From Granulimonas faecalis (GTDB taxonomy: Bacteria > Actinomycetota > Coriobacteriia > Coriobacteriales > Atopobiaceae), in NCBI RefSeq assembly GCF_022834715.1, contig NZ_BQKC01000001.1, positions 1,834,501-1,898,500 on the forward strand: a stretch of 64,000 nt of DNA, given 5' to 3'. The first letter of the stretch is position 1; every line of letters starts with the position of its first letter. The position numbers were made by a program, and so were the translations under genes. Below the pieces are notes generated by a model. The model was not told the origin of the DNA. It was given only the letters and a program-made list of their open reading frames with translations, and searched no databases. This document shows positions 54,558 to 57,201 of this stretch, piece after piece.

Positions 54558-54640
54558 GGGGCCTCCCGAGGGATCGGCGGGCGCGGGTCTGTCGGGGTGG
54601 TCTCTACCCCGCGGCGCACGCATCCCGGCGCCCCGCCCCA

Positions 54641-54684
54641 TCACCCGGACACTTTTGTCCCAATGGTCGGACACTTTTGTCCCA
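54641..54684. repeat. family A repeat cluster, site 6
   Basis: Units at 54647 and 54669, 22 bases apart, separated by AATGGTC. They lie 84 bases upstream of the lipase start in the 623-base divergent gap before the JetD-type gene. Confidence 0.8.
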
Positions 54685-54773
54685 CATCGCCGGCGGAGCG
54701 GGGGCGCCCCGGTCCGAGGCCGCGGCGGAGCCGCCCTACAGGGGTCGCATGCAGCGGGGCCACCCTGTAGGGG

Positions 54774-54990
54774 CGCCCTGCAACGGGGCGTTGCGACAGG
54801 GACCCGCTGCGGGGCGGCGGATCGCGCATCGGGGCGCCTTCGCGTGCCGAAACCCACCCTCCAAGACCCCCTTGCGGCAGGAATGCGCTGGAGGGCGCAC
54901 GGCAACGCGGGCCCGCGCCAGAGGGGCGTTGCAGGGCGGCCCTGCAGGGCGCCGTTGCGGAGAGACCCCACCACGGCCCACGGGCCCCGC
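54774..54990. repeat. family F, complex GC-rich inverted repeats
   Basis: CGCCCTGCAACG (54774-54785) recurs as its exact reverse complement CGTTGCAGGGCG (54927-54938), and each is embedded in GGGGCG/GTTGCG-type repeats and CCCTGCAGGGCG-like palindromes. The 623-base gap 54558-55180 thus contains families A, F and H in order and no gene. Confidence 0.6.
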
Positions 54991-55067
54991 TGCGGACGTG
55001 CCCCCCGCTGGGACGCCCCGGCGACACGGTCGCCGCCGGGGGAATCATCAATACCGCAATAAGAGGA

Positions 55068-55096
55068 GTGACAGATGGGCCAGGCGCCTCTGTCAC
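55068..55096. repeat. family H hairpin, copy 1
   Basis: GTGACAGA (55068-55075) and TCTGTCAC (55089-55096) close a stem of 8 bp around TGGGCCAGGCGCC. The other copy, at 63461-63489, differs by one base. It stands 85 bases upstream of the JetD-type start. Confidence 0.75.
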
Positions 55097-55180
55097 GCGG
55101 CGCACACGAGAGGAGCCGCGCCCCCTCTGCCACATCCGGTAGCATGGGGCGCGGCACGGCGGCGACGGCGAGGAGGGCCC

Positions 55181-56575
55181 ATGACACAGGAGCGACGCTA
55201 CCCCACCTTCGGAGAGGTGCGCTTCTCCGTGCTGCGGCACTTCGAGGCCCGGCGGTTCGCATACGCCGCCGCGCTGCTCCGCGACGCCGAGCCGCCGGAG
55301 CCGTTTGACCTCGACCTCGGCGCCCCCTCCCAGCAGGAGCTGAACACCGGCCCGCAGCCCTGGCTCGAGGCCGCCGACGAGCTCGACCGCGCCATCGCCG
55401 AGGCGCGGCTCCCCCACACCGCCGTGCCCCGCACCGACCCCGCCACCGGCGCCCCCATGGAGCTGCCGGCGGCCCTGGTCGGCCTCACCCCCGAGGACGT
55501 CTCACGCCTCTCGGGGCCCTTCTCGGCCACGATGTCGCGGCTCAACGCCCATGCCCGCGCGTTCCGCCCCTACGGTCCCTTTTCGGCCGGGGAGGCCGAG
55601 GAGCTCCTCTGCCTGTCTGAGTGCTGGGACCGCGAGGGGATCAAGCTCCTGCTGGAGGTGGCCGACTGGTTCCTGACCCACGACCCCACCGGCCTCACCG
55701 CGCGGCAGCTGCCCGTCGACGGCCTGGGAAGCAAGTGGCTGGACGACCGGGACCGCCGGCGCTGCGTGCTGCTGCTCACCCATCGGCGCGGCCTCGGCCT
55801 CTCGGAGCGGGAGCGCGTGTGGCAGTGGCGGCTGCTGGACCCCGCATGGGCGTCGGACCCGGGGCACCCCCGGTTCGCGTTCGCGCTGTCGGGCGACGCG
55901 CCCTGGGAGCCGCCGTACGAGCCGAGGACCGTCGTGGTGAGCGAGAACCGCGACTCCATGGAGGCGTTCCCGCTGTCGGTCCCCGGGGCCGTGTGCCTGT
56001 GGGGGCAGGGCGCCACCGCTCCGCGGGCCCTCGACGACCTTCCGTGGCTGGCGGCGGCCGAGCACGTCTACTACTGGGGCGACATCGACGCCGCGGGCCT
56101 GGAGATCGCCGACCGCTTCGTGGCCGCCTGCGAGGCACGGGGCGTGGCCGCGCGGACCCTCGCCATGGACGGCGGCACCTACCGGCGGTTCTCACGCTTT
56201 GGCGTGGATGTGGACGAGGGCGCGCGGCGCGCGGCGCGGCTGGACCACCTGAACGGTGCCGACAGGATCCTCTACAAGCGGCTCTGCTCCAAGGACTGCC
56301 CGGGCCCGCGCCGCGTGGAGCAGGAGAAGGTCCCCTACGAGTGGGTGCTGTCCCAGATGGCCGAGACGGGCGGCCCCGCCGTGCGGCAAGCCGCGGGCGG
56401 CGGGACGGCGGGCTCCGGCGAGCCGGACCGACGCGGGGCGACCGGGACCACCGTGACGGTGCACCTCTCCCCCGAGCAGATGGAGCTGGTGTCCGACGCG
56501 GCCCGGGCGGCGTCCATGGGCGTGGCGGCCTACGTGCGCGCGATGGCCCTGGAGGCCGCCGACGGGTGGGAGTAG
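55181..56575 (+). CDS. orphan JetD-type (DUF3322/DUF2220) nuclease with RHH-like C-terminus
   Basis: A 464-residue protein of the Wadjet JetD family. The N-terminal half follows the DUF3322 pattern (LPVDGLGSKWLDDRDRR, then LERVWQWRLLDPAWA-type arginine-rich block). The C-terminal half is the TOPRIM-like DUF2220 domain: VVVSENRDSMEAFPLSVPG (about residue 250-270, catalytic-type glutamate), DDLPWLAAAEHVYYWGDIDAAGLEI (in pieces, about 290-310; the two aspartates of GDID), then RVEQEKVPYEWVL. In Wadjet, JetD is the endonuclease that cuts small circular DNA after JetABC loads on it. Here no JetA, JetB or JetC gene adjoins. A further C-terminal segment (about 424-464, TVTVHLSPEQMELVSDAA... AYVRAM) resembles ribbon-helix-helix DNA-binding domains of MobC/CopG type. 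ATG 55181 follows GAGGAGG. Confidence 0.85.
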   Translation: MTQERRYPTFGEVRFSVLRHFEARRFAYAAALLRDAEPPEPFDLDLGAPSQQELNTGPQPWLEAADELDRAIAEARLPHTAVPRTDPATGAPMELPAALVGLTPEDVSRLSGPFSATMSRLNAHARAFRPYGPFSAGEAEELLCLSECWDREGIKLLLEVADWFLTHDPTGLTARQLPVDGLGSKWLDDRDRRRCVLLLTHRRGLGLSERERVWQWRLLDPAWASDPGHPRFAFALSGDAPWEPPYEPRTVVVSENRDSMEAFPLSVPGAVCLWGQGATAPRALDDLPWLAAAEHVYYWGDIDAAGLEIADRFVAACEARGVAARTLAMDGGTYRRFSRFGVDVDEGARRAARLDHLNGADRILYKRLCSKDCPGPRRVEQEKVPYEWVLSQMAETGGPAVRQAAGGGTAGSGEPDRRGATGTTVTVHLSPEQMELVSDAARAASMGVAAYVRAMALEAADGWE

Positions 56576-56605: not shown

Positions 56606-56793
56606 TCACCCGTGGATCCTCATCGTGCCAATCGTGTGGATGAAGGCGGGGTCCCCGTGGTCCACGATCTCGCTCGCGCCGCGGTCCAGGGAGGCGACCT
56701 CGCCCATCTCGGCCTCGGAGAGCTCGAAGTCGAAGATGTCGATGTTCTCCTCGATGCGCTCGCGGTGCACCGACTTGGGGATGGACACCACGC
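56606..56793 (-). pseudogene. 3' remnant of an aldo/keto reductase gene
   Basis: The last 62 or so codons of an aldo/keto reductase: GVVSIPKSVHRERIEENIDI followed by FDFELSEAEMGEVASLDRG. The family motif normally preceded by a full (alpha/beta)8 barrel starts abruptly at the junction near 56794. No start codon or ribosome site serves it. Confidence 0.85.
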
Positions 56794-56794
56794 C

Positions 56795-56957
56795 GCTGCT
56801 CACCTTCTACACCGAGAAGGCCGGGGGGCGGCCGGAGGGCCGCTCGCTCGTGCCCATTGGAGACGCGGGCGCGACGCAGACCCTCTACCTGCTCTGGAGG
56901 CATGGCGACCGGTGGGCGCCGATGGCGGAGCGGGGGGCCGCGGCCCACGGCAGGTAG
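56795..56957 (+). pseudogene. 3' remnant, probably of a LysR-family regulator gene
   Basis: About 53 codons in frame (LTFYTEKAGGRPEGRSLVPI, then ATQTLYLLWRHGDRWAPMAE) ending at TAG 56957. The pattern (charged loop, then a TLYLLWR strand and a short helix) is that of LysR C-termini. It begins right where the aldo/keto reductase remnant ends on the other strand. Identity as LysR is tentative; as a remnant it is clear from the lack of any start. Confidence 0.55.
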
Positions 56958-57009: not shown

Positions 57010-57024
57010 GGACACTTTTGTCCC
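57010..57024. repeat. family A repeat, site 7 (single unit)
   Basis: GGACACTTTTGTCCC with a partial unit 22 bases before (TCCCTTTGGTC). In the gap between the reductase/LysR scar and GH13. Confidence 0.7.
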
Positions 57025-57060
57025 ACTTCGGGAGGGCCGGCCCTTCGCCACTTTGACCGG

Positions 57061-57116
57061 GCACCCGCAGAAGCCTCCACGGGCGCCTTTCCGCCTGCAG
57101 AAGCTTCCACGGGCGG
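57061..57116. repeat. family B hairpin pair, site 3
   Basis: Units at 57061-57087 and 57090-57116 (CACCCGCAGAAGCCT type and CGCCTGCAGAAGCTT type). They lie between family A sites 7 and 8, mirroring the A-B-A arrangement at 52.3 kb. Confidence 0.8.
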
Positions 57117-57130
57117 GCCGTCCGGCGATT

Positions 57131-57170
57131 GGGACAAAAGTGCCCGACCATTGGGACAAAAGTGTCCGGG
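57131..57170. repeat. family A repeat cluster, site 8
   Basis: Units at 57131 and 57153 in GGGACAAAAGTG orientation, 22 bases apart, spacer GACCATT; upstream of the GH13 stop. Confidence 0.8.
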
Positions 57171-57201
57171 TGGTGGGACAGGGGCGCGGGGCGAGGGGCC
57201 C

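What the first reader, a model, noticed from the sequence alone, without database searches (positions are those of the whole stretch)
55181..56575. Solo JetD-type nuclease fused to a ribbon-helix-helix-like domain, with no JetABC
The DUF3322/DUF2220 signatures and the TOPRIM-like acidic residues (glutamate in SENRDS, aspartates in WGDIDAAG) are intact. In known Wadjet systems JetD acts only with the SMC-like JetABC complex, absent from both sides here. The added C-terminal RHH-like segment could supply DNA targeting in place of the SMC loader, so this may be an independent DNA-cutting or plasmid-control protein. It is bracketed by dispersed repeats and a deletion scar, as defence genes often are.
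Basis: partly seen in the sequence, partly recalled or inferred. Interest (0 to 1): 0.82.

Follow-up and report, generated by a model that had tools for sequence, protein, structure and literature searches.

The report
Orphan Wadjet JetD nuclease with added tail
One actinobacterium keeps only the DNA-cutting part of a four-part anti-plasmid machine, and that cutter carries an extra short tail resembling a known DNA-binding domain, so it may cut DNA by itself or may be a leftover; only this one example was found.

Summary
Window 55181-56575 encodes a 464-residue, full-length type I Wadjet JetD (MksG): DUF3322 plus JetD_C, an AlphaFold2 core with pLDDT mostly 90-98 that best matches solved MksG/JetD, and all 16 residues invariant in 77 aligned JetDs, including the Toprim acids.

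JetA and JetB are absent from the whole genome (2 contigs, 96% complete). The only over-cut-off JetC-type ATPase hit is not JetC. In 77 of 80 named relatives JetD sits beside JetC, so solitude is exceptional.

The tail (424-460) looks like a ribbon-helix-helix domain of the NikA/MobA or DUF6290 kind (E about 1e-5, just under Pfam's cut-off). AlphaFold2 draws one long helix, so this is probable, not shown. No other JetD examined has such a tail.

The protein sits on by far the longest branch of the JetD tree, yet strict positions are kept, allowing at most about 0.28 neutral substitutions per site. Best reading: a selected, solitary JetD nuclease whose tail helps it bind DNA; a recently orphaned, fading Wadjet remnant is the main rival. 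The flanking repeats are a genome-wide family and say nothing about defence. New variant of a known kind, single instance, function untested.

The parts
55181..56575 (+). orphan type I Wadjet JetD (MksG-like) gene, 464 aa
   Evidence: Pfam JetD_C 95.6 bits, DUF3322 47.4 bits; PADLOC JetD1 1e-54; AF2 model matches 8b7f Z 23.2 and 7til Z 18.2
55217..55759 (+). N-terminal DUF3322 (arm/CAP) domain, residues 13-193
   Evidence: E. coli JetD N-terminal domain 8q72_M aligned to residues 7-127, Z 8.2
55916..56353 (+). Toprim nuclease domain JetD_C, residues 246-391, with E255, D301, D303, E380, E382 kept
56366..56446 (+). low-complexity Gly/Ala linker, residues 396-422 (disordered in the model)
   Evidence: pLDDT under 50 at 406-425; GC3 0.93
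56450..56560 (+). probable ribbon-helix-helix segment, residues 424-460
   Evidence: NikA-like PF21983 E=9.8e-6, DUF6290 0.0015, MobA 0.0025; shuffles none; GC3 1.00, GC2 0.52; AF2 shows one helix only
55170..55175 (+). Shine-Dalgarno-like GAGGAG just before the ATG
   Evidence: sequence
54638..55098 (.). intergenic repeat mosaic upstream of jetD; longest other copy at G000:C1:1551902-1552331, 77% identical
57010..57190 (.). copies of the GGACACTTTTGTCCC dispersed repeat downstream of jetD
56606..56803 (-). truncated C-terminal remnant of an aldo/keto reductase gene (rearrangement scar)
   Evidence: PF00248 positions 254-290 of 291, E=6.6e-4

Best explanation
It is a genuine type I Wadjet JetD that has lost (or left) its JetABC motor and acquired a C-terminal RHH-like tail, and it has been kept under selection as a stand-alone, metal-dependent Toprim endonuclease. 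Proposed mechanism: the protein dimerises through its Toprim domains as MksG and JetD do; two RHH tails, on flexible linkers, pair to make a DNA-binding ribbon; this tethers the nuclease to particular DNA (perhaps plasmid or mobile-element sites, since the nearest RHH families are oriT-binding NikA/MobA-type proteins and RHH regulators such as DUF6290), raising local concentration enough to replace loading by JetABC; the two Toprim sites then cut the duplex. Shown: the gene, intact core and invariant acids, absence of JetA/JetB/JetC, uniqueness of the tail, long but constrained branch. Inferred: that the tail folds as RHH, binds DNA, and that the protein cuts without partners in the cell.
For: Full JetD domain set; confident JetD fold; 16/16 invariant residues kept; 22 of 24 columns conserved at 95% or more kept although the branch is 2.34 substitutions per site against a median of 0.33, so any neutral phase is at most about 0.28 substitutions per site; no JetA/B in the genome and the JetC-family hit is not JetC, whereas JetC adjoins JetD in 77 of 80 named relatives; RHH-family hits of the tail with clean shuffled controls; tail has coding-type codon bias, GC3 1.00; precedent that MksG alone cuts DNA; solitary JetD_C proteins of another kind are widespread in the same bacterial family, one of them fused to a DNA-binding IHF domain and conserved in two genera.
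Against: A single genome; no orthologue with the same tail in 398 class-mates or elsewhere, so selection after orphaning cannot be measured. It has the lowest retention of all 77 rows at Toprim columns conserved at 80% or more (23 of 31), including R314V and E361D. Tail scores are under the curated cut-offs and AF2 gives one long helix without a strand. Free JetD is thought to be autoinhibited and weak without JetABC (PMC10586767). Part of the constrained branch may date from when the lineage still had JetABC.
Confidence: 0.48

Rival explanations
1. Fading Wadjet remnant: JetABC was recently removed in a repeat-mediated rearrangement and jetD, fused to a neighbouring RHH gene end or carrying an irrelevant extension, has not yet decayed. 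It does nothing selected.
For: The locus is a synteny breakpoint: the PFK side and the amylase side lie far apart in two related genomes, with repeats and a truncated reductase between; Toprim positions conserved at 80% or more are the least well kept of 77 JetDs; in this G+C-rich DNA long open frames occur by chance, e.g. a 318-codon open stretch in another frame of the same gene; another orphan, in Actinoplanes xinjiangensis (L057), is N-terminally truncated.
Against: Strict positions are kept: neutral drift at most about 0.28 substitutions per site; no trace of JetA/B/C fragments beside it; body and tail both carry coding-type codon bias and there is a good ribosome-binding site.
Confidence: 0.33
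2. The protein works with another partner (host SMC or SbcC-like ATPase, or an unrecognised loader) that replaces JetABC, and the tail is a protein-binding rather than a DNA-binding element.
For: The CAP/N-terminal domain is as well conserved as in JetABC-linked JetDs: 14 of 15 columns at 80% or more; AF2 draws the tail as a helix; an SbcC-like ATPase is encoded elsewhere.
Against: No neighbouring candidate gene; jetD is monocistronic between a divergent gene and a convergent remnant. No evidence links SbcC or SMC to any solitary JetD.
Confidence: 0.1
3. The tail acts as an RHH operator-binding or autoregulatory segment (antitoxin-like), and the nuclease is a toxin-like or silenced enzyme.
For: Second-best RHH family is DUF6290, and the tail aligns with small RHH proteins encoded in relatives.
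Against: Nuclease and RHH are on one chain, no toxin or antitoxin partner gene adjoins, no matching operator was identified.
Confidence: 0.05
4. JetABC exists in the part of the genome missing from the assembly.
For: Completeness is 96%, not 100%.
Against: JetABCD genes are adjacent in nearly every relative and the DNA beside jetD is fully assembled without them; only 2 contigs.
Confidence: 0.04

Closest known systems
MksG / JetD of type I Wadjet (MksBEFG of Corynebacterium glutamicum, PDB 8b7f; JetD of P. aeruginosa, 7til; E. coli JetD(E248A), 8q72)
   Same: Same two-domain architecture (DUF3322 + Toprim JetD_C), same catalytic acids (E255 matches MksG E236 and E. coli E248; D301 matches D279; E380/E382 match E349/E351 by alignment), best fold matches.
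   Different: No JetABC in the genome; extra linker and RHH-like tail; very long branch; R314V and E361D changes.
Solitary JetD_C (formerly DUF2220) proteins of the same bacterial family, including the JetD_C-IHF fusion at G000:C1:1798716-1801118
   Same: Toprim JetD_C domain without JetABC; in the fusion, an attached DNA-binding domain.
   Different: They lack DUF3322, score only about 27-46 bits to JetD_C, have long charged linkers, and are conserved across species; not orthologous to the window protein.
NikA-like / MobA / DUF6290 ribbon-helix-helix proteins
   Same: Profile match over about 35 residues of the tail.
   Different: Scores are under curated cut-offs; here attached to the C-terminus of a nuclease instead of being a small free protein.

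Membership tests
Type I Wadjet JetD (protein family) | DUF3322 N-terminal domain plus JetD_C Toprim domain above curated cut-offs | tested here: met
   47.4 and 95.6 bits against cut-offs of 22
Type I Wadjet JetD (protein family) | Toprim metal-binding acids and downstream EQE motif | tested here: met
   E255, D301, D303, E380, Q381, E382 invariant in 77 JetDs
Type I Wadjet JetD (protein family) | JetD fold | tested here: met
   AF2 model; 8b7f Z 23.2 and 7til Z 18.2, well above the rest; the large rmsd fits the known hinge between domains
Type I Wadjet JetD (protein family) | Falls inside the tree of JetABC-linked JetDs | tested here: met
   Nested with Coriobacteriia and Bifidobacterium JetDs, support 82/89; long branch, exact place unsure
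Wadjet system (JetABCD) | Adjacent JetA, JetB and JetC | tested here: not met
   Absent from the window and from the genome for JetA and JetB; the JetC-type hit fails the JetC profile
Ribbon-helix-helix superfamily (tail) | Match to an RHH profile over its curated cut-off | tested here: inconclusive
   NikA-like 26.1 bits against cut-off 27, E=9.8e-6; RHH_1 14.0 against 20.5
Ribbon-helix-helix superfamily (tail) | Strand-helix-helix fold, dimeric | tested here: inconclusive
   AF2 monomer shows one helix 431-460 and no strand; the strand needs a dimer, which could not be modelled
Stand-alone JetD nuclease | Metal-dependent DNA cleavage without JetABC | not testable with these tools
   Only by analogy with MksG (PMC10123090)

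The most novel reading that the evidence does not exclude
A JetD nuclease has been freed from its SMC motor and re-targeted by a fused oriT-binding-type RHH domain, giving a one-protein anti-plasmid or anti-mobile-element endonuclease that recognises DNA by sequence instead of by circular shape.
Probability: 0.15. Interest if true: 0.8.

Novelty: new variant of a known kind. Interest (0 to 1): 0.42.

Why it matters
Wadjet is understood as a motor that measures DNA and then licenses JetD to cut. A JetD that survives under selection without the motor, with a candidate DNA-binding tail, would show how the effector can be uncoupled from the sensor and would make 'what does JetABC really supply?' testable with a single protein. 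If it is only a remnant, it is a useful snapshot of how Wadjet systems decay.

Tried and rejected
JetABC fragments in the flanks by profile search of frames down to 15 codons with filters off: nothing. The JetC-type Walker B hit at G000:C1:1817931 does not match a JetC profile and reads like SbcC. Phage and viral collections for relatives: none; plasmids: three distant JetD hits, two in Rhodococcus and one in Stenotrophomonas. Tail against PDB by sequence: only chance hits. Tail against plasmids: best annotated hits are TraJ and MobC proteins but E is 2 or worse, so only suggestive. Tail relatives in viral contigs: none. Rfam around the gene: nothing. The idea that the repeats mark a defence island was dropped because the same repeats lie between many genes. 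I expected the N-terminal domain to be the part that changed most after loss of JetABC; by conserved columns it is the Toprim periphery instead. Active-site geometry in the AF2 model was not measured. Papers on orphan or solitary JetD, or on JetD with ribbon-helix-helix: none in the library.

Full report
What is there. The window's ORF 55181-56575 (+) encodes 464 residues with a ribosome-binding site just upstream. Pfam gives JetD_C (95.6 bits, residues 246-391) and DUF3322 (47.4 bits, residues 13-193), both far above the cut-off of 22; PADLOC names it JetD of type I Wadjet (1e-54). An AlphaFold2 model from 77 aligned JetDs has mean pLDDT 89, mostly 90-98 over residues 11-390, and its best solved matches are C. 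glutamicum MksG (8b7f, Z 23.2) and P. aeruginosa JetD (7til, Z 18.2), ahead of topoisomerase VI A. The large rmsd of these matches (12-18 A) fits the flexible link between the two domains that the literature describes. The 16 columns invariant in the 77-row alignment include E255, N256, D301, D303, E380, Q381 and E382; by alignment E255 matches E. coli E248 (the E248A of 8q72) and MksG E236, and D301 matches MksG D279.

JetABC is absent. In the genome holding the window (2.23 Mb, 2 contigs, 96.3% complete) no JetA (DUF3375) and no JetB (DUF4194) is found. One hit to the SbcC-type Walker B family is over its cut-off, and it does not match a JetC profile built from relatives. No fragment of any of the three lies in the window. 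By contrast JetC adjoins JetD in 77 of the 80 named loci found by profile; two of the other three are cut by contig ends and the third (L057, Actinoplanes xinjiangensis) is an N-terminally truncated orphan. Among 120 relatives, 8 have JetB over the cut-off, and each of these 8 also has a type I JetD.

The tail. Residues 396-422 are a Gly/Ala-rich linker and 424-460 resemble a ribbon-helix-helix domain: NikA-like PF21983 at E=9.8e-6 (26.1 bits, cut-off 27), DUF6290 at 0.0015, RHH_1 at 0.05, TacA at 0.09, and NCBIfam MobA at 0.0025; eight shuffled tails gave no hit. Small proteins in related genomes align with it through the T-x-T-[VMI] strand and the [YF][VMI]R motif of helix B. AlphaFold2, both in the full protein and on the tail alone, draws a single helix 431-460 without the strand. 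RHH strands pair only between chains, so a monomer model neither proves nor disproves it; I rate RHH at about 0.75. None of the other JetDs examined carries such a tail.

Selection. On a maximum-likelihood tree the protein nests with Coriobacteriia and Bifidobacterium JetDs (support 82/89) but on a branch of 2.34 substitutions per site, the median end branch being 0.33. Of 24 columns conserved at 95% or more in the others it keeps 22; if changes there were neutral, a neutral phase could be at most about 0.28 substitutions per site. Part of that constraint may predate the loss of JetABC. The weaker tier tells the other way: in Toprim columns conserved at 80% or more it keeps 23 of 31, the lowest of 77 rows. 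An open frame alone is weak evidence in such G+C-rich DNA, but G+C by codon position is coding-like in body and tail.

Surroundings. jetD is monocistronic: a lipase-like gene on the minus strand upstream and a truncated aldo/keto reductase remnant on the minus strand downstream. In two genomes of another genus of the family that share DNA with both flanks, the PFK-side genes and the amylase-side genes are in different places (G046: 1.81 Mb and 0.35 Mb; G022: different contigs), so jetD sits at a rearrangement junction. The bracketing repeat GGACACTTTTGTCCC occurs 18 times in the window against 0.07 expected and at dozens of further places in the genome; it is an intergenic repeat family and does not single out this gene. 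A 460-base repeat mosaic lies directly upstream.

Mechanism. JetD is a dimeric, metal-dependent Toprim nuclease that JetABC loads and activates on small circular DNA. MksG alone cuts DNA in vitro, best with Mn2+ (PMC10123090), though a review notes that JetD alone needs artificially high concentration and lacks circle specificity, and is probably autoinhibited (PMC10586767). A tail that binds DNA and dimerises could raise local concentration and replace loading; that is the inferred step. The nearest RHH families are oriT-binding mobilization proteins and DUF6290, so plasmid or mobile-element sites are a reasonable guess for the target, no more.

Comparison with what is known. It is a member of the JetD family by every feature tested, and it is not a Wadjet system because JetABC is missing. 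Solitary JetD_C proteins are not in themselves strange in this bacterial family: about 20 of 120 relatives carry one while having no JetB, the eleven read in full from this group show shared motifs and long charged linkers, and the window's own genome has one fused to an actinobacterial IHF domain, conserved in two genera. Those are a different, more distant kind. What is new here is a true Wadjet-type JetD without the motor and with a candidate DNA-binding tail, seen once.

Verdict. Observation confirmed; interpretation partly supported. New variant of a known kind, interest 0.42. The functional claim rests on analogy, and a recently orphaned remnant remains a serious rival.

Noticed in passing
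L003:8717-11119 (-), i.e. G000:C1:1798716-1801118, same genome, about 90 kb from the window gene: An 800-aa ORF joins a JetD_C Toprim domain, a long Pro/Ala/Glu-rich linker and an actinobacterial IHF (H2TH) domain. The fusion is conserved in G022 and G046 (78% identity over the Toprim part); G000 and G022, the two checked, also have separate IHF genes. It looks more conserved, and perhaps more telling, than the window gene.
   Followed up: partly
L152-L162 and others listed: About 20 of 120 relatives without JetB encode a solitary JetD_C-like protein (open frames about 420-755 aa) with motifs V(T/S)ENLDP, LYWGDIDRAG and IPQEILT and a long charged linker: a family-wide chromosomal Toprim protein with no Wadjet partner.
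   Followed up: partly
window 9122, 38061, 40291, 52294, 54647, 57010, 63251 and dozens of further places in G000: GGACACTTTTGTCCC dispersed repeats, often paired 22 bases apart, sometimes with a second palindrome GTGACAGATGGGCCAGGCACCTCTGTCAC; a REP-like intergenic family.
   Followed up: partly
L057:7962-8777 (Actinoplanes xinjiangensis): Another JetD without JetABC in its 16.6-kb locus, but N-terminally truncated: a likely decayed orphan.
   Followed up: partly
window 56606-56803 (-): C-terminal aldo/keto reductase fragment abutting unrelated sequence: a rearrangement scar next to jetD.
   Followed up: partly
G000:C2 (about 147 kb second contig), 99193-99486: The second contig carries its own IHF-like gene; it may be a plasmid or chromid in a strain that lacks an intact Wadjet.
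   Followed up: no
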